From NCBI GenBank assembly GCA_018267475.1, contig JAFDYI010000004.1, positions 1 to 64,000 of the forward strand: a stretch of DNA of 64,000 nucleotides. The letters are read 5' to 3'. The notes under the pieces are model-generated. The model saw nothing but the letters and a program-made list of their open reading frames with translations, searched no databases and was not told the DNA's origin. The position numbers and the translations under genes are program-made. Positions 35,457-43,472 of the stretch are shown here, in pieces. Within the stretch, counting starts at the first letter, position 1, and every line of letters starts with the position of its first letter. The DNA is from Bacteroidota bacterium. Its GTDB lineage: Bacteria; Bacteroidota; Bacteroidia; B-17B0; Aurantibacillaceae.

Positions 35457-36857
35457 ATGAAAAAAACAACCCATTTATTTTTAGGGATGGTGCTCATAGC
35501 AAGCATGGTGTTTTTTTCGTGTAAAAAAACACATGATATGCCGCCCGTTATACCCAGTACCGGCACTCTTACCATTGCGCAAGTGCGGGCCTTGTATAAT
35601 GGAAGCAATATAAAATTTACACAAGATATTTCGTTGTATGCTACCGTAACCATGACCGACGGCTACAAAACCCTATACCTGCGCGATAACACCGGCGCTA
35701 TTATGCTTAGGCAATTAAATGCGCATGGTATTTACGAAGGCGACTCGTTGCGAGTAAATCTAAATGGTTCTACTTTAGATATGTCGGGGGCGCAAAGCTC
35801 GTTACAAATAGACTCGGTAGATGTAAGTTCCACCTCGTCCAATAAAATTATAAAATTAGCTTTAGGCGCCAGCCATCCTCCTATACAACTCACCATAGCC
35901 CAAGCCAACGCTTCGGTTACTAATACGGTGTATGCCAACGGTACCACCTTGCCTCTTTCTGCTTACGATGGGCAATTGGTGCAACTAAATGGGGTACAAT
36001 TTGCGCCTACCGCTACGGGTTTATACATTCCGCTTAACACTACAGCTACCTATATTACCACGCTAAAAATATACGATTGTGGAGCTGTAAACAGCATGCC
36101 TTTTTCGTTGTACTCAGGTACTAGCGATTTTTTATATAAATACATTCCTATCAATAATAGTGGTTCGATTATAGGAGCACTAACTTTCTATAACGGAGCT
36201 ATTCAAATCACACCGCGCTCGTATCAAGATATGATGTTAAACCAACCGCGCTGCGGTGTAGATACGCTTACACAATCGTTTGCGGCAGCTACTTCCGCCG
36301 TTACGGGTAGTAATTTTTCTGCCACTTTTCCGGGCTGGGGCAGTTGGACTACATACGGCTCTGTAGTGTGGGCTGGCTCTGCTAGTGTGGGTAGCCCGCC
36401 GGGGTATTTATCAGCTACTAATTATAATTTTGGCAGCCCACAAGCCCGAAATGAAATGTGGCTCGTAACACCACCTATACAAAACAACAATCCTAATAAG
36501 AAAATATCGTTTGACATGTCTATGGCTTTTCAAACAGCAGCCCATAATCAGCAACTCAGTGTATTGCTTTCTACTAATTATCAAATAGACTCTATGAGTA
36601 AAAACCCCAATTTAGGTTTGCCCAATTATACCACTTCGTTGCCTAATGCCAACTGGGTAGATATTACGTCTTCTTTTTCATTAAACCCAAGTGGAAGCTT
36701 TGTTAATGCAGGAGTGATTTCTGTATCAAGCACGGCAGCACAAACAGCGCTAAGCGGATACAATGGTACCTATTACATTGCTTTCAGATATCGAGCCAGT
36801 AGCATAGCCGATTCGTCGCAAACAGTAAATATCAGAAATGTGTCCATAAAAAATTAA
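35457..36857 (+). CDS. DUF5689 and choice-of-anchor-J lipoprotein (first copy)
   Basis: This envelope lipoprotein of 466 residues has a lipobox cysteine at residue 22 (VFFSCKK). Residues about 40-260 form a DUF5689-like OB-fold region, including LYLRDNTGAIML and LRVNLNGSTLDMSG. The second half (about 275-466) is a choice-of-anchor-J, MAM-like jelly roll (WLVTPPIQ and YYIAFRYRAS). It begins 3 bp after the receptor gene and is paralogous to the next gene. It probably acts on the cell surface as the ligand-capturing partner of the receptor; that role is inferred. Confidence 0.82.
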   Translation: MKKTTHLFLGMVLIASMVFFSCKKTHDMPPVIPSTGTLTIAQVRALYNGSNIKFTQDISLYATVTMTDGYKTLYLRDNTGAIMLRQLNAHGIYEGDSLRVNLNGSTLDMSGAQSSLQIDSVDVSSTSSNKIIKLALGASHPPIQLTIAQANASVTNTVYANGTTLPLSAYDGQLVQLNGVQFAPTATGLYIPLNTTATYITTLKIYDCGAVNSMPFSLYSGTSDFLYKYIPINNSGSIIGALTFYNGAIQITPRSYQDMMLNQPRCGVDTLTQSFAAATSAVTGSNFSATFPGWGSWTTYGSVVWAGSASVGSPPGYLSATNYNFGSPQARNEMWLVTPPIQNNNPNKKISFDMSMAFQTAAHNQQLSVLLSTNYQIDSMSKNPNLGLPNYTTSLPNANWVDITSSFSLNPSGSFVNAGVISVSSTAAQTALSGYNGTYYIAFRYRASSIADSSQTVNIRNVSIKN

Positions 36858-36864
36858 CTACATT

Positions 36865-38334
36865 ATGATAAAAAAAACGACATATCATTTTGTTTTGGTA
36901 CTAACATTAAACCTTATGTTAGGAGGAATTTTTTTAATGTCTTCTTGCAAAAAATATACAGAACCCAGCCCGGTGCCCCCTCCTGTTGGGCCTACCGTTA
37001 CCATACAACAGTTGCGTGCCATGTATATGGGTATGAACATTTCTTTTAATACCAATACTATTTTAAACGCGGTAGTTACTTGTGATGAGTCGTCGGGTAA
37101 TTTATATAAGCAAGTATATATACGCGATAATTCCGGGGCATACAGCGCTACGCATAATTATGGCGCCATTTCGGTTAAGTTTTTGCAATCTACCCAGGGG
37201 TTTTTAATAACAGGAGATTCTATTGCTATTAACCTAAACGGCTGCACTCTTGATAAATCGGGCGGGGGGTCTTTGCAGATAGATTCGGTAGTAGCTACCA
37301 AACAAGGGCAGATTACCCATTTGGGTTTGGCAAAGGTGGTACCACAACCTATTGTAGCGAGTATTGCACAAATAGATACGTTCGTAAATCAAGCAGGAGG
37401 CGGATTTATTTATGATGGCCAATTAGTACAACTTAATAATGTAGAGTTTATACCCAGCAACGTAGGCACCACGTACGCAGTACCACAAGCCCCACCGGCA
37501 CCGCCACAAAGCATCAATAAGTACATTAATGATTTTGCAGGAAATACATTGGTGGCGTACAACAGCGGTTATGCTAATTTTGCGGGACAAACCATTCCTG
37601 CAGCCAGCGGTACCCTTACCGGAGTAGCGAACCTTTATACCACCATGCAGTTTCTTATTCGTTCGTATGCCGATGTGCAGTTAAGTAACCCGTATCAGTC
37701 TATTATGTATGATGTTATTGGCCCGGCCGCAGCTCCTACCATATTCCCCCCTTTTATGTATCAGCCTCTAGCAAAAAACCAATCGGCAGTTATGGCCGGG
37801 TGGACCAACCTAGCCTACCAAGGTTCTATATTATGGCAAGGTGCCCAAACCGGGAGCCCCAATACTTCTAACGGAAACCCTCCCTATTGGATATACCACC
37901 CATCAAGTTCCAACTACCAAACCAGCGATCAAGTAAACGATATGTGGCTTATATCCCCTCCTATAAAAGATTACGGCGCTACCCCTACTAAATATATTGA
38001 TTTTTCTACCGCTGTACTCTATGGCACACCCAAGTGTTTATTAAGTGTATGGGTTTCTCGCAGTTTTGATGGAGTGCATCTTATTCCCTCTCAATGGACC
38101 AATATCTCTGCATTTTTTCCCGGCATTAGCACCACCAGTAGTTCAGGTGCAACCCCCTCTTTTAAATATGCGCATAGCGCCATAAGTCAGGTATATACTC
38201 CGGTTCCTATACCTATTACTATTAGCGGAAGCAGCCCTACTTTTTATCTTGCTTTTAGATACAGGAGCAACGTTAATTATAGCGACTCTACCGGAAGCAC
38301 CTATTTATTAGGCGCCTTAACCCTTCATAATTAA
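36865..38334 (+). CDS. DUF5689 and choice-of-anchor-J lipoprotein (second copy)
   Basis: This 489-residue lipoprotein has its lipobox cysteine at residue 28 (LMSSCKK). It shares the same layout as the preceding gene: a DUF5689-like domain (VYIRDNSGAYS and IAINLNGCTLDKSGGGSLQIDS), then a choice-of-anchor-J domain (MWLISPPIKDYG and FYLAFRYRSN). The two diverge widely in the anchor-J part, so the duplication is old and the ligands may differ. It lies 7 bp after its paralogue. Confidence 0.82.
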   Translation: MIKKTTYHFVLVLTLNLMLGGIFLMSSCKKYTEPSPVPPPVGPTVTIQQLRAMYMGMNISFNTNTILNAVVTCDESSGNLYKQVYIRDNSGAYSATHNYGAISVKFLQSTQGFLITGDSIAINLNGCTLDKSGGGSLQIDSVVATKQGQITHLGLAKVVPQPIVASIAQIDTFVNQAGGGFIYDGQLVQLNNVEFIPSNVGTTYAVPQAPPAPPQSINKYINDFAGNTLVAYNSGYANFAGQTIPAASGTLTGVANLYTTMQFLIRSYADVQLSNPYQSIMYDVIGPAAAPTIFPPFMYQPLAKNQSAVMAGWTNLAYQGSILWQGAQTGSPNTSNGNPPYWIYHPSSSNYQTSDQVNDMWLISPPIKDYGATPTKYIDFSTAVLYGTPKCLLSVWVSRSFDGVHLIPSQWTNISAFFPGISTTSSSGATPSFKYAHSAISQVYTPVPIPITISGSSPTFYLAFRYRSNVNYSDSTGSTYLLGALTLHN

Positions 38335-38377
38335 AAAACAGCAACACAATAAATAAAAACCAAAAAATCAATTCAAC

Positions 38378-39910
38378 ATGAAAACAAAACTCTTACAAGC
38401 AAGCATGATAGCATTTGTAGCCATGACTATAAATGTATCGGCACAAGCCCCTTTAGGGCCGGCCATTATTACCGATGGCTTTGAAAACTGGACAGGCAGT
38501 AACCCTAACAATTGGATGGCAGCCCCTGCCAACACTATTGCAACCACCTCGGTAAGCAGTGTGGCGCAAGTTGCCAGCAGCTCAACTAACACACCTCAAT
38601 CGGGGAGCTATTCATGCAAACTCATTAACAGCTCTTCTTCGTATTCAACCGGTATTATGGCTTATGCCCCTACTACGGTTACGGCTTCTCCGGTAGCGTA
38701 TCAAATATCGTATTTTGCTCGCGGAAAAGGCACCATTGCTTGTGAAGTAACCGATGGAAGCGCCGCTACTTCTTCTACACATTACGCTGCCGCTAATGGG
38801 CAAGCGGTAAACGGTAAAGGATGGCATCATTATTTTCAAACCGTTATTGCACCTACGGCTACTAACAACGCCCAGTTTTGCCTAAAAGTAAAAAGCACCG
38901 GCACCTATACCTCTTCAGGAGGGGTAAGCATACAGGGTATAGATGTAGATAGTTTTGTAGTACGCCCTTATGTACCCATTAACGCATCGTTATATCAAAT
39001 ACAATATACCACCGCCAGCAATGGCAATTCTCCTTTTTTTGGACAATATGTGGGCAAAACAGGTGGTATTGTTACGGCAAAAGTATTGAGCAGCAGCAGC
39101 ACCTCTTCAGCACCGGCTTATAGCGGCTATTACATTCAAACAACAGGTGCCAGCGACTGGGCAGCTCTTTTGGTATTTGATCAAACAAACTCGCCAAACG
39201 TAGGCGATAGCGTTACTATGATGGGCGCCGTAGATGAGTATTTTGGTATGACGGAATTGGTACAGGTAAGCAACTTTACTGCTATGGCTAGCGGACACAC
39301 TATTTCCCCTACTTTAGTTACTTCGCAAACGGTGGCACAAGAATCGTATGAGAGCTTTTTAGTAGGCATTCAAGCAGCTACGGTAAATACCTATAGCGCC
39401 AACTATGGACAAGCCACTATGACAGATGCATCGGCTGTGCCTTGTATGTTGGATTTAAAAAATAATTTCTACCCGCCTAATGGCACGGCTACCAGTGGTT
39501 CTTCAGGCAACCCGGGGTATAACGTGTCTTCGTACGTAGGTACCAGCACCGATTTTTGTGTATCGGGCAATGTAAACTATGAGTTTAATGCCTATAATAT
39601 CGTACCGCGCGACTCGGCCGACATCGTAAAAAATTGCACCACGCTTACCGGTATTGCAAGTCATAGTAATACGCTGCAAGCTTCTATGTACCCCAACCCG
39701 GTGGCTAATCAGTTGATGATTAACCTTCCTTTTGAGGCGCACCAGGTGTCGGTATCGTTTACAGATATGTTAGGAAAAGAAGTATTATCCGTAGTAGGCC
39801 TTTCAGGTCATAACGTGAGCATAAACAACATGAACATTCCTGCCGGCGTATATGTAATAAAAATTACGGCTGATAACCAAACACAAATAGCTAAAATAGT
39901 AAAACAATAA
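38378..39910 (+). CDS. T9SS-exported protein with OB-fold-like middle domain
   Basis: This secreted protein of 510 residues has a signal peptide (to about NVSAQA) and a C-terminal T9SS type A sorting domain (about 435-510, SMYPNPVANQLMINL ending IAKIVKQ). The N-terminal part resembles a carbohydrate-binding or anchor-type jelly roll (ITDGFENWTG and GSYSCKLINSSSS). The middle (about 205-420) resembles the DUF5689/OB-fold arrangement (VGDSVTMMGAVDEYFGMTEL). It follows the two DUF5689 lipoproteins and ends at a strong terminator, so it probably belongs to the same system as its outermost component. Confidence 0.82.
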   Translation: MKTKLLQASMIAFVAMTINVSAQAPLGPAIITDGFENWTGSNPNNWMAAPANTIATTSVSSVAQVASSSTNTPQSGSYSCKLINSSSSYSTGIMAYAPTTVTASPVAYQISYFARGKGTIACEVTDGSAATSSTHYAAANGQAVNGKGWHHYFQTVIAPTATNNAQFCLKVKSTGTYTSSGGVSIQGIDVDSFVVRPYVPINASLYQIQYTTASNGNSPFFGQYVGKTGGIVTAKVLSSSSTSSAPAYSGYYIQTTGASDWAALLVFDQTNSPNVGDSVTMMGAVDEYFGMTELVQVSNFTAMASGHTISPTLVTSQTVAQESYESFLVGIQAATVNTYSANYGQATMTDASAVPCMLDLKNNFYPPNGTATSGSSGNPGYNVSSYVGTSTDFCVSGNVNYEFNAYNIVPRDSADIVKNCTTLTGIASHSNTLQASMYPNPVANQLMINLPFEAHQVSVSFTDMLGKEVLSVVGLSGHNVSINNMNIPAGVYVIKITADNQTQIAKIVKQ

Positions 39911-39992: not shown

Positions 39993-40967
39993 TTACCAAT
40001 TTGATTGGCTTTTTCGCCCAATAGCAAACACACGGGTAATGTTGAAACCAATGCGCACCCCCGATGCTTTCCAACTGGTGCTGGTAGTCATTAGGTAGCT
40101 GTTTTCCATAATGCCAAAGGAGTTAGTGGCAAACAACTGAAATACATGCCCTCCCGTTTCTATTTCCCATCCAATACCCATAGAATTGTAGTATTGGCTT
40201 CCTGCCGAAGCATAATTCGTATTTAAACGATAAGCGTACTCAAAAATAATGGCTTGTCGTCTATTAAACTTAGCCCGCACCACACCTGTTAGCGCCCAAC
40301 AATCGTTTTTGGCTAAATGATACATATATTTCGAGTCGTAATTAGGAGTATTGCCATCTACCAAATTGTAATGTACCCAAGCGGGCGCCACTTGTAGAGA
40401 CAGCCAAGGGGTAACCTTGCAGGCAATAATAATTTCGTTTACGTACGAAAGCCGGTCGGCTACCTTGCGGTAATACTCTACCGGAACCCCTGCGTTTTGC
40501 ATGGTAAAAGTATGGTACACCCCCCCGAAGTAGGTAACGGTAAAAGGAAAGCCGTGTTTTACTTGTCTAAATAGTTTTATCTTCACAAAAGCTTCCGCCG
40601 TTTTATTTTCTATGCAACGAGATATGCCCACCATCCAGCGCCCTGTGTGGCTGTATTCCAAACTGAGCATTAAGTTAGCCGGCCCGTCAATACCCCAAGC
40701 GTTGTTAGCCCCTGAATTTAAGCGGTCAAAACGATGCGAGATGCGAAAATCCAAACAACGTTTACCTAATACTTCGGCGGTGTGAAAATTAATGTTTCGG
40801 GTGGACTTAAACGTGCCGGTTACAAACTCTTTTTCCTTTTTAGCGGGAGGTGTTTCTACTAAGCTAAGCAAATCAGGGGTTTTGCTTGTGTCTTGTGTTT
40901 TTTGTGCTTGTGCAAAATAGTTACCAGTTAAAAATAAAAAACAAAAAACGTATTTTTTAGTACTCAT
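39993..40967 (-). CDS. DUF5777-type beta-barrel outer membrane protein
   Basis: This 324-residue exported protein has a signal peptide (to FAQAQ). Alternating strands are typical of an outer-membrane barrel (FRISHRFDRLNSGANNAWGIDGPANLMLSLEY, given here as a span rather than a motif, at about 70-105), and the C-terminus is positively charged. The match to the DUF5777 family is by pattern. It lies 21 bp after a cytochrome-like lipoprotein and is probably in the same operon, which suggests a porin-like role for electron or small-molecule transfer across the outer membrane. That role is an inference. Confidence 0.78.
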   Translation of the reverse strand: MSTKKYVFCFLFLTGNYFAQAQKTQDTSKTPDLLSLVETPPAKKEKEFVTGTFKSTRNINFHTAEVLGKRCLDFRISHRFDRLNSGANNAWGIDGPANLMLSLEYSHTGRWMVGISRCIENKTAEAFVKIKLFRQVKHGFPFTVTYFGGVYHTFTMQNAGVPVEYYRKVADRLSYVNEIIIACKVTPWLSLQVAPAWVHYNLVDGNTPNYDSKYMYHLAKNDCWALTGVVRAKFNRRQAIIFEYAYRLNTNYASAGSQYYNSMGIGWEIETGGHVFQLFATNSFGIMENSYLMTTSTSWKASGVRIGFNITRVFAIGRKSQSNW

Positions 40968-40988
40968 GTGATTTTCTTGTTAGGGTGC

Positions 40989-41396
40989 TTAGTTGTTTTT
41001 TGAACCTTGATCCATCCATCGTATTATTTTGTTGATGGTGCATGGGTCCATTTTTGAGGCGCCCTTAGGCATTGTGTGCAATGCGTTGGGTGCCCAGGTA
41101 ATATCTAAATATACGTTATTGGTGCTATCGGCGCTGGTGTTGCCCGCAAAATGCTGATAAGAAGAAAAATTACTACCCAAGCCGCCGCTACCATGGCAAC
41201 TGGCGGCCTGTGTGCCCGATATGCCGCAGTTGGTGGTGAGTATGGGTACAATATCGCGCGAGTACGATACCGAATCGGGGAGTATGCAGGGGGGAGGAGT
41301 AGCAGCTACGGGGTTCATGGTTTCCCAGTTGTGGTAATAACAAGAACCCAAAATCAAGCATAAAACGATTGTTAATACAAAAGAGGTTTTTTTCAT
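40989..41396 (-). CDS. Cytochrome c-like lipoprotein with CX9CH site
   Basis: This 135-residue lipoprotein has its lipobox cysteine at residue 19 (LILGSC). It has the fold pattern of small Bacteroidota cytochrome c lipoproteins: DIVPILTTNC at 48-57, SCHG at 66-69, a methionine in HTMPKG as possible distal ligand, and WMDQGSKNN at the end. The spacing C57 to C67-H68 is CX9CH rather than CXXCH. Haem attachment is therefore uncertain; the extra residues may form a loop or the heme may be lost. It lies in an operon with the DUF5777 barrel. Confidence 0.75.
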   Translation of the reverse strand: MKKTSFVLTIVLCLILGSCYYHNWETMNPVAATPPPCILPDSVSYSRDIVPILTTNCGISGTQAASCHGSGGLGSNFSSYQHFAGNTSADSTNNVYLDITWAPNALHTMPKGASKMDPCTINKIIRWMDQGSKNN

Positions 41397-41430
41397 CGAC
41401 TATACGAAAGTAGGTGCGAAGGTACAAAAT

Positions 41431-42267
41431 TTAAAACACGATTAATTTTTCGGTGCTTACCTGTTGGTTTACAAACAAGCGCACAAAGTAAGCGCCTTTA
41501 GCTAAAGAGGCAGGCAGGCTTACATTCATGCTTTGCTTGCCAGCGTTTTGTGTTTGGTTTAATAATTCGGTAATTAATTCTCCATTCAAATTATATAGCT
41601 TTACCGACACCTCGGCTTTTTCTATTAAATGGTAGCTAACCGTAAAGTTGCCGGCGCTGGGGTTAGGAAATACAGAAAGCTGGGTTGTGTTGGCTTGCTG
41701 GTAGTTTTCTATACCCGCAGAAGAGGTGGGTGTAAGTGTATAAGCCAAATCTACTACTTGGTCGCCATTATCGGTGCCATCGCCATTAGCGCCTAACACC
41801 GCAGCGTATAAATAGGCGGTGCCACTGGCAGGTGCTACCCAGGTATATTGAGCGCTAGCACTAGATGCTATAGGCGCCCTATGCATGATATTAGTGGGCG
41901 TACTCCCACTTTTACAATTAGAAGAAAGCGCGGCCATAGTACCCGCATTACCTGCTGAGGTAGCGCTGGTAGAGTTAAGCGTTTCTACATCTAAACCAAA
42001 ATAGGGATAACCGCTTTGAGTAACCGTAATGGTATAAGTGGTGCCCGGCACATAGGTTAAATTAGTGCCGCTGCCGCCAAAGGCAGGGCTAGCAACTAAA
42101 TTAGCATTAGGGATACTGGCTCCACCCCCGTGGCAATTAGAGCAATCGCTTCCGTCGTAAGGAGATCCGGTTTCAAAGGCGATGCCTGTTGGGTGCAACA
42201 TAGTAAATCCGGTAGCTAAAGCTACAACGCCTGCTCCGAGGGCAAAAATTAGAAGATTTTTTTTCAT
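41431..42267 (-). CDS. Choice-of-anchor-V (Reeler-like) cytochrome with T9SS tail
   Basis: This exported protein of 278 residues has an N-terminal signal or membrane segment (about 1-25). A CXXCH haem-binding site CSNCH lies at residues 42-46. A Reeler-like choice-of-anchor-V beta-sandwich spans about 50-185. The T9SS type A sorting domain spans about 198-278 (VFPNPSAGNF ending STEKLIVF). It is therefore probably a surface-exposed c-type cytochrome. It heads the minus-strand arm, 34 bp before the lipoprotein gene, and faces the Rieske gene across a 201-bp regulatory region. Confidence 0.82.
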   Translation of the reverse strand: MKKNLLIFALGAGVVALATGFTMLHPTGIAFETGSPYDGSDCSNCHGGGASIPNANLVASPAFGGSGTNLTYVPGTTYTITVTQSGYPYFGLDVETLNSTSATSAGNAGTMAALSSNCKSGSTPTNIMHRAPIASSASAQYTWVAPASGTAYLYAAVLGANGDGTDNGDQVVDLAYTLTPTSSAGIENYQQANTTQLSVFPNPSAGNFTVSYHLIEKAEVSVKLYNLNGELITELLNQTQNAGKQSMNVSLPASLAKGAYFVRLFVNQQVSTEKLIVF

Positions 42268-42317
42268 AGTTTCATTTTTTTAATAAAACAACCTTAGCTT
42301 GTTTATTACCTACCAAC

Positions 42318-42325
42318 CAAAGTTA
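42318..42325 (-). promoter_or_regulatory. Putative -7 promoter of the cytochrome arm
   Basis: TAACTTTG on the minus strand matches TAnnTTTG, 50 nt before the ATG at 42267. Confidence 0.5.
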
Positions 42326-42368
42326 TTTTGCGGTTAATTATTAAATTAGGGCGACAAAATTAAGAATA

Positions 42369-42436
42369 CATCCTGAAAACATTCTGAAGTTTTGCATAAA
42401 AAAAATAAGTATTTTCTTCAGAATGTCTTCAGAATT
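42369..42436. promoter_or_regulatory. Symmetric four-site operator-like array
   Basis: Two direct repeats with an 11-bp step (CATCCTGAAA at 42369, CATTCTGAAG at 42380) are mirrored by two inverted copies with the same step (CTTCAGAATG at 42416, CTTCAGAATT at 42427). The inner pair forms an 11-bp perfect inverted repeat (ACATTCTGAAG with CTTCAGAATGT). The 11-bp phasing places all half sites on one helix face, as for OmpR/PhoB-type regulators. It lies between the two divergent promoters. Confidence 0.65.
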
Positions 42437-42443
42437 GAAATGG

Positions 42444-42451
42444 TATCTTTG
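42444..42451 (+). promoter_or_regulatory. Putative -7 promoter of the Rieske gene
   Basis: TATCTTTG is a perfect TAnnTTTG element 17 nt before the ATG at 42469, beginning 7 bp after the rightmost operator-like repeat. Confidence 0.6.
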
Positions 42452-42468
42452 CAGAAAATAGTTTAAAA

Positions 42469-42891
42469 ATGGAAATAAAAACCATAAGCAGAGAAGAGTT
42501 TTTGCGGCAGGTAGGGGTGGGAGCCGCTTTTTTGCTAATAGCTTCTTGTGCAGGCTCTTGCGTAAAAACATCGAATTCATCTTCTTCAAGCTCTTCCGTT
42601 GATATGATTATTAATGTATCATCAGGGCCATTATCGCAAAATGGAGGCTCACTTATTCAGAGTGGGGTTATTATAGCGCGTACCAATTCAGGAACCTTTA
42701 TAGCGGTAGCGGCTACTTGTACCCACCAGGGCGGCACACTGGGCTACCAGGCAAATACTAATGAGTTTGTGTGCCCTGTACACGGCGCCATTTTTAACGC
42801 AAGCGGCAGCGTGGTGCAAGGCCCCGCTAACACGGCTTTACAAAAATACAATACATCTCTTTCGGGCACTTCGCTTCGGGTATATTCATAA
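42469..42891 (+). CDS. Rieske 2Fe-2S lipoprotein
   Basis: This small periplasmic electron-transfer lipoprotein has 140 residues. The lipobox is LLIASC (cysteine 27). The Rieske ligands are C83 and H85 in CTHQGG and C101 and H104 in CPVHG. The disulfide cysteines of the bc1-type Rieske proteins (CTHLGC) are absent, which usually lowers the redox potential. There is no cytochrome b beside it, so it is not part of a bc1 complex here. It is followed by a YceI gene 35 bp later in the same orientation. Confidence 0.9.
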   Translation: MEIKTISREEFLRQVGVGAAFLLIASCAGSCVKTSNSSSSSSSVDMIINVSSGPLSQNGGSLIQSGVIIARTNSGTFIAVAATCTHQGGTLGYQANTNEFVCPVHGAIFNASGSVVQGPANTALQKYNTSLSGTSLRVYS

Positions 42892-42926
42892 AAAAACATC
42901 TTTATATAAAAACAAACATTATCTAT

Positions 42927-43472
42927 ATGAAAAATCGGTTCTTTATTGTGATTTCATTATTGATGCTAAACAGCATGTCGGCACAGATTTATGTAGGTAA
43001 AACCTGCTTAGTACATTTTTTTTCTAAAACAGATATGAAAGATATAGAAGCCGGCAATACGATAGCAAAACCCGTGTTTGATGCCGCTTCAGGAAACTTT
43101 CAGGTGCGCATACAAAATACAGCCTTTAAGTTTGAGTCTTCTTTTATGCAAGAGCATTTTAATGAAAACTACATGGAGTCGGATAAGTATCCGTTCGCCA
43201 CTTTTAAAGGAAAAATAAATGAAAAAATAGATTACACCAAAAATGGCGAAAGTAAAGTAAGTTGCACCGGCACCATGGATATGCACGGCGTTACACAAAC
43301 CATTACTACGGAAGGTACGCTTACCGTAAAAGACGGAACGATTATAATGGTTTCTAAATTTAAAATAAAGCCGGCCGACTACAAAATAAAAGTACCCTCG
43401 CTATACGTAAAAGAAATTGCTGAGGTAATAGATGTGGATATAAGCGCCACCTTAGAGCCTTACAAAAAATAA
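42927..43472 (+). CDS. YceI-family periplasmic protein
   Basis: This exported lipocalin-like protein of 181 residues has a signal peptide (to NSMSAQ). It has YceI features such as MESDKYPFATFKG and GTMDMHGVTQTIT. Family members bind polyisoprenoid compounds and are thought to act near quinone metabolism. Coexpression with the Rieske lipoprotein suggests a role in handling a quinone-like or hydrophobic cofactor in the envelope. The start ATG at 42927 fits the signal peptide. Confidence 0.9.
   Translation: MKNRFFIVISLLMLNSMSAQIYVGKTCLVHFFSKTDMKDIEAGNTIAKPVFDAASGNFQVRIQNTAFKFESSFMQEHFNENYMESDKYPFATFKGKINEKIDYTKNGESKVSCTGTMDMHGVTQTITTEGTLTVKDGTIIMVSKFKIKPADYKIKVPSLYVKEIAEVIDVDISATLEPYKK

What the first reader, a model, noticed from the sequence alone, without database searches (positions are those of the whole stretch)
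39993..43472. Candidate envelope redox module: T9SS cytochrome, CX9CH lipoprotein, beta-barrel, Rieske lipoprotein and YceI protein
Seen: five exported proteins, two with clear redox sites (CSNCH; Rieske C-H/C-H) and one with a cytochrome-like fold, plus an outer membrane barrel, arranged on two arms around one regulatory region. Known: YceI proteins bind isoprenoids; porin-cytochrome pairs move electrons across outer membranes. Inference: a pathway carrying electrons from periplasm to surface (or reverse), with the T9SS tail placing the terminal cytochrome outside. I know of no described system with this exact make-up.
Basis: inference. Interest (0 to 1): 0.7.

Follow-up and report, generated by a model that had tools for sequence, protein, structure and literature searches.

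The report
Conserved outer-membrane redox gene module
Across many Bacteroidota, a small outer-membrane barrel protein of unknown function (DUF5777) is encoded beside a one-haem cytochrome and a lipid-binding YceI protein, and in one lineage the cytochrome is fused to the barrel, so it is probably part of an undescribed electron-transfer device at the outer membrane.

Summary
The five genes are present as described. Three of them (monohaem-type cytochrome lipoprotein C, YceI protein Y, DUF5777 barrel B) form a real module conserved across Bacteroidota. In 117 DUF5777 loci drawn without regard to neighbourhood, C lies within three genes of the barrel in 92, Y in 95, Rieske in 11 and a cupredoxin in 6; 12 show no obvious redox protein, 3 of them cut by contig ends. 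C and Y are about 20 times commoner there than further away in the same loci. A cytochrome-DUF5777 fusion occurs in seven genomes of one order. C belongs by profile to class I cytochromes c, with invariant Cys, Cys-His and Met; the window's CX9CH spacing is unique among relatives seen. The linked YceI is a distinct subfamily. The T9SS CSNCH protein and the Rieske protein are occasional extras; the exact five-gene set was seen only here. Best reading: an undescribed outer-membrane redox module in which interchangeable one-electron carriers dock on the periplasmic side of the DUF5777 barrel. Direction and substrate are unknown.

The parts
39993..40967 (-). DUF5777 outer-membrane beta-barrel (B), 324 aa, predicted 12 strands with signal peptide
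   Evidence: Pfam PF19089 E 2.5e-72; AlphaFold2 pLDDT 87.6, 12 strands; invariant ETGGHVFQ motif in 77 relatives
40989..41396 (-). class I cytochrome c-like lipoprotein (C), 135 aa, CX9CH, distal Met (residue 109), lipobox LGSC
   Evidence: C57, C67, H68, M109 invariant in 74 sequences; profile matches bc1 cytochrome c subunit, FoxE, cytochrome c6 at E 2e-8 to 3e-7; linker lengths 2-6 in relatives, 9 only here
41431..42267 (-). choice-of-anchor V domain protein with CSNCH haem-c-type motif and T9SS type A sorting domain (V), 278 aa
   Evidence: NF041895 60.6 bits (cut-off 42), TIGR04183 51.3 bits (cut-off 23); relatives beside the module only in L069, L154, L160
42268..42468 (.). shared divergent intergenic region with TAnnTTTG (-7 type) motifs: 42318-42325(-), 42355-42362(-), 42444-42451(+)
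   Evidence: 3 in 201 bp against about 0.3 expected from window density; promoter function inferred
42469..42891 (+). Rieske [2Fe-2S] lipoprotein (R), 140 aa, CTH...CPVH
   Evidence: PF00355 E 3.4e-13; homologues beside DUF5777 in 11 of 117 systematic loci
42927..43472 (+). YceI-family exported protein (Y), 181 aa, of the DUF5777-linked subfamily
   Evidence: PF04264 E 1.6e-12; 183.9 bits to the linked-YceI profile against 22-123 bits for the genome's five other YceI proteins

Best explanation
The genes belong to a conserved, previously undescribed outer-membrane redox module built on the DUF5777 barrel. Shown: the barrel is encoded with a class I cytochrome c-type lipoprotein and a dedicated YceI subfamily in most Bacteroidota that have it; a Rieske protein or cupredoxin sometimes stands in for or accompanies the cytochrome; and one lineage fuses the cytochrome to the N-terminus of the barrel. 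Inferred: the one-electron carrier docks at the periplasmic mouth of the 12-strand barrel, because the N-terminus of such a barrel is periplasmic and the barrel's most conserved motif, ETGGHVFQ, lies at a predicted periplasmic turn. It passes electrons between the periplasm and either a small diffusible or ionic redox partner that uses the barrel, or a surface-exposed carrier such as the T9SS-exported CSNCH protein. YceI would handle an isoprenoid or quinone cofactor. Direction and substrate are not established.
For: Neighbourhood conservation in a sample drawn only on the barrel: C 92/117, Y 95/117, R 11/117, cupredoxin 6/117; C and Y about 20-fold enriched near the barrel; median gap 10 bp among 392 adjacent same-strand core pairs. 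Fusion of a CX4CH/MP cytochrome domain with DUF5777 in seven genomes, the six others full length at 52-57% identity to the L102 query. C invariants Cys, Cys-His, Met and a profile match to class I cytochromes c. Dedicated YceI subfamily. Some C-B pairs lie in operons with an EB_dh haem lipoprotein, 4Fe-4S protein, NrfD and further cytochromes c. Cytochrome c maturation genes CcmE and a CcmF/CcsA-type protein are in the genome. All 98 DUF5777-bearing genomes have a haem-copper oxidase, while the 11 of 247 without one lack DUF5777.
Against: No haem, electron transfer, localisation or expression data. About 10% of loci show no recognisable redox protein beside the barrel, and the Y or C gene is sometimes absent. 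The CX9CH spacing in the window is unique, so haem attachment to this particular copy is uncertain. The barrel has no solved relative by sequence, and its fold is generic, so a transporter role unrelated to electron transfer is not excluded.
Confidence: 0.6

Rival explanations
1. Substrate channel: DUF5777 is a small-molecule outer-membrane channel, and the carriers supply electrons to an enzyme that acts on the imported or exported substrate, so the barrel itself is not redox machinery.
For: Closest folds are small-molecule or polypeptide channels with 12 strands or similar: FapF, KdgM, NanC, COG4313, FadL. The lumen carries conserved charges (R79, K129, K184, R231, E243, E270).
Against: No constant enzyme partner accompanies the C-Y-B core in the surveyed loci. 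The direct cytochrome-barrel fusion favours electron transfer at the barrel. Fold matches of barrels are not specific to function.
Confidence: 0.25
2. Porin-cytochrome (Mtr/Pcc-like) conduit: the cytochrome sits inside the barrel and makes a continuous haem wire across the outer membrane to the T9SS protein.
For: Barrel, cytochrome and a surface-targeted CXXCH protein are adjacent; a cytochrome-barrel fusion exists.
Against: The 12-strand prediction is too narrow for a cytochrome domain; monohaem proteins only; the surface protein is found in 4 of about 198 loci.
Confidence: 0.05
3. Envelope redox or stress sensor: the cytochrome and YceI report the redox or lipid state of the envelope, and the barrel is the outer-membrane sensing part.
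For: ECF sigma factor genes and FecR-like genes lie upstream in some loci, many of them in one genus.
Against: Regulatory neighbours differ between lineages and are absent from most loci, including the window, while the redox carriers are constant.
Confidence: 0.1

Closest known systems
Porin-cytochrome conduits (MtrCAB, Pcc, Omc)
   Same: An outer-membrane barrel encoded with cytochromes; possible electron transfer at the outer membrane.
   Different: 12-strand barrel instead of a large porin, monohaem class I cytochromes instead of multihaem ones, YceI partner; no sequence relation was tested or seen.
FoxE and cytochrome c6 / bc1 cytochrome c subunit (class I cytochromes c)
   Same: C family profile matches them (E 2e-8 to 3e-7); invariant Cys, Cys-His and Met; FoxE was the only structural match retained for the C model, Z 7.3, rmsd 2.5 over 85 residues.
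   Different: C is a lipoprotein with Cys-Cys linkers of 2-9 residues, linked to DUF5777. Z under 8 does not by itself show kinship to FoxE.
YceI polyisoprenoid-binding proteins
   Same: Pfam YceI domain; weak match to solved polyisoprenoid-binding proteins, E 0.003.
   Different: A distinct subfamily linked to DUF5777; ligand unknown.
FapF / KdgM / NanC / COG4313 barrels
   Same: Barrel fold, Z 17-18.
   Different: No detectable sequence relation; different conserved residues and gene partners.

Membership tests
DUF5777 (PF19089) | Match over the Pfam gathering score | tested here: met
   243.5 bits against 23.1
Class I cytochrome c | Cys-Xn-Cys-His motif and distal Met conserved in the family | tested here: met
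   C57, C67, H68, M109 invariant in 74 sequences
Class I cytochrome c | Sequence-profile relation to known class I cytochromes | tested here: met
   bc1 cytochrome c subunit 2.2e-8, FoxE 7.9e-8, cytochrome c6 3e-7
Class I cytochrome c | Canonical CXXCH spacing in the window's own protein | tested here: not met
   CX9CH; relatives CX2CH 137, CX4CH 103, few others. Hence called cytochrome-c-like until haem is shown
Class I cytochrome c | Covalent haem | not testable with these tools
   Needs haem stain or spectrum; maturation genes CcmE and CcmF/CcsA-type are present, ResB not found
Porin-cytochrome conduit (Mtr/Pcc) | Large porin that can enclose a cytochrome | tested here: not met
   12 strands predicted
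Porin-cytochrome conduit (Mtr/Pcc) | Multihaem periplasmic and surface cytochromes | tested here: not met
   At most one CXnCH motif per protein in the window module
T9SS cargo | C-terminal type A sorting domain | tested here: met
   V protein TIGR04183 51.3 bits, cut-off 23
choice-of-anchor V | NF041895 over cut-off | tested here: met
   60.6 bits against 42
Rieske | CxH...CxxH and PF00355 | tested here: met
   CTH...CPVH, E 3.4e-13
YceI | PF04264 over cut-off | tested here: met
   48.5 bits against 23.7
YceI | Isoprenoid or quinone binding | not testable with these tools
   Inferred from family only

The most novel reading that the evidence does not exclude
DUF5777 barrels are the outer-membrane part of a new, phylum-wide electron-exchange system: single-electron carriers of three unrelated folds plug into one small barrel from the periplasm, and T9SS-exported cytochromes or cupredoxins take or give the electrons on the cell surface.
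Probability: 0.2. Interest if true: 0.85.

Novelty: new variant of a known kind. Interest (0 to 1): 0.58.

Why it matters
DUF5777 occurs in 98 of 247 sampled Bacteroidota genomes and has no assigned function. Its constant pairing with redox carriers, and the fusion with a cytochrome, give a concrete functional lead and make it testable in a tractable Flavobacterium. If it moves electrons at the outer membrane, it would be a route unlike the multihaem conduits known so far, in a phylum not usually associated with extracellular electron transfer.

Tried and rejected
Mtr-like conduit: rejected on the 12-strand prediction. Surface export of C through a Bacteroidota lipoprotein export signal: acidic residues after the lipid Cys are not enriched in C (70/157 with two or more) compared with other lipoproteins in the loci (59/148), so undecided. 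Solved relatives of DUF5777 by sequence: none convincing (best E 0.22). A first distant alignment was too diverse for the search for related loci; a closer subset worked. VIA-align of the C model compared only three chains, so it says little. The TAnnTTTG count over the whole window is not enriched (85 against 98 expected); only the local cluster is suggestive. Literature searches for DUF5777, YceI with Rieske, T9SS cytochromes and CX4CH found nothing describing the module; subscription papers and preprints were not searchable, so absence of a description is not proven. No model coordinates were available, so inward and outward faces were assigned from strand alternation only.

Full report
OBSERVATION. 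On the minus arm, from the shared intergenic region outwards: 41431-42267, a choice-of-anchor V protein with CSNCH and a T9SS sorting domain (V); 40989-41396, a 135-aa lipoprotein with CX9CH (C); 39993-40967, a DUF5777 barrel (B). On the plus arm: 42469-42891, a Rieske lipoprotein (R); 42927-43472, a YceI protein (Y). Family assignments are from Pfam and NCBIfam. The 201-bp region between the arms holds three TAnnTTTG motifs, two pointing to the minus arm and one to the plus arm; that they are promoters is inference.

NEIGHBOURHOOD TEST. DUF5777 is in 98 of 247 Bacteroidota genomes drawn evenly from the phylum and in 0 of 14 control genomes, and the window genome has one copy. I fetched the DNA around these copies and scanned it with profiles grown from the window's own proteins. 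In 117 loci, C lies within three genes of the barrel in 92, Y in 95, R in 11 and a plastocyanin-type cupredoxin in 6; 12 show no recognised redox protein, 3 of them cut by contig ends. Per gene, C and Y are found at 0.159 and 0.146 within three genes and at 0.0076 beyond, and R and the cupredoxin only near the barrel. Adjacent core genes on one strand are typically 10 bp apart. Eighty named relatives from genome contigs repeat the picture: C 68, Y 66, R 4; these were chosen by similarity to the window's barrel, so they are not an independent sample. The core is therefore C-Y-B. The V gene sits beside it only in the window, L069, L154 and L160, and the exact five-gene divergent set was found only in the window.

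THE CYTOCHROME. By itself the window's C protein scores below Pfam's cut-off for a cytochrome. Its family settles the matter: in 74 sequences the first Cys, the Cys-His and a Met are invariant, and the family profile matches the bc1 cytochrome c subunit, FoxE and cytochrome c6 at E 2e-8 to 3e-7. The Cys-to-Cys linker is 2 residues in 137 cases, 4 in 103, rarely 3, 5 or 6, and 9 only in the window. Whether CX9CH still receives haem is unknown. The genome has CcmE and a CcmF/CcsA-type protein, with no ResB match.

THE FUSION. In L102 a single gene encodes a signal peptide, a cytochrome domain with CX4CH and a methionine in the MP position, and a DUF5777 barrel. A search of 60 genomes of that order found the fusion in seven genomes, the six beyond the query's own being full length at 52-57% identity with the haem-type motif kept. 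Since the N-terminus of an even-stranded outer-membrane barrel is periplasmic, the fused cytochrome should lie at the periplasmic mouth; that orientation is general knowledge of such barrels, not shown here.

THE BARREL. AlphaFold2 with 77 sequences gives mean pLDDT 87.6 and 12 strands. Nearest solved folds are FapF, KdgM, NanC, the COG4313 channel, autotransporter barrels and, lower, FadL (Z 12-18), a generic set that does not fix function; no solved relative is detectable by sequence. A 12-strand barrel is too narrow for a cytochrome domain (general geometry, not computed with a tool), so a haem wire through the barrel is unlikely. Twenty-four positions are invariant in the 77 sequences, among them ETGGHVFQ (270-277) at a predicted periplasmic turn; the loci were fetched with that motif as the pattern, but H274, F276 and the near-invariance of T271 also hold in 53 more diverse sequences that were not. 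By strand alternation H78, H274 and R312 point outward on the strands that close the barrel, which is unusual and may mark a binding surface (inference).

THE YCEI PARTNER AND OTHER CONTEXT. The window's YceI scores 183.9 bits with the profile of barrel-linked YceI proteins (median 182.8), the genome's five other YceI proteins 22-123, so this is a dedicated subfamily; the profile was seeded with the window's protein, which favours it somewhat. About a quarter to a third of loci also have an OB-fold protein (PF12869) nearby. Some C-B pairs without YceI lie with an EB_dh haem lipoprotein, a 4Fe-4S protein, NrfD and further cytochromes c, which points to respiration. T9SS-tailed cupredoxins occur at L118, L127, L195 and L221 and a T9SS-tailed CSNCH protein at L087, so surface-targeted carriers recur but are uncommon. 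All 98 DUF5777-bearing genomes have a haem-copper oxidase; the 11 of 247 without one lack DUF5777; that difference is modest since most genomes have an oxidase.

INTERPRETATION. Most likely these genes encode an undescribed outer-membrane redox module in which interchangeable one-electron carriers work at the periplasmic face of the DUF5777 barrel, with YceI handling a lipid cofactor. The pairing, the carrier families and the fusion are shown; docking, direction, substrate and the role of the T9SS protein are inferred. The chief rival is a substrate channel with electron supply to an enzyme. I found no paper on DUF5777 in the library and none linking YceI with Rieske in this way, though only open-licence papers were searched.

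Noticed in passing
L067, L080, L109, L142, L143, L145 (around the barrel): C-B pairs without YceI lie in operons with an EB_dh haem lipoprotein, 4Fe-4S protein, NrfD and several cytochromes c, some with a NorC-like protein: possibly an outer-membrane respiratory complex.
   Followed up: partly
About 60 loci, e.g. L208:1491-1901: An OB-fold protein of family PF12869 (tRNA_anti-like) with an N-terminal membrane segment recurs in the operon.
   Followed up: partly
window 40989-41396; L132, L151, L154, L156-L158, L166, L167: Cytochrome family with Cys-Cys linkers of 2, 3, 4, 5, 6 and 9 residues: a natural series for testing what cytochrome c maturation tolerates.
   Followed up: partly
L118, L127, L195, L221; L087:8797-10428: Cupredoxins and a Temptin-like CSNCH protein with T9SS sorting tails beside DUF5777 modules.
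   Followed up: partly
L112, L117, L104, L128, L131 and others: Longer versions of C with two CXnCH motifs (dihaem type), sometimes alongside single-motif copies.
   Followed up: no
window 35457-39910: Two DUF5689 lipoproteins and a T9SS-tailed protein with a weak ExeM/NucH nuclease match lie next to the module.
   Followed up: no
window 42469-42560: The Rieske signal reads SREEFL where relatives have SRKDFL or SRRKFL; the twin-arginine feature may be lost in the window's copy.
   Followed up: no
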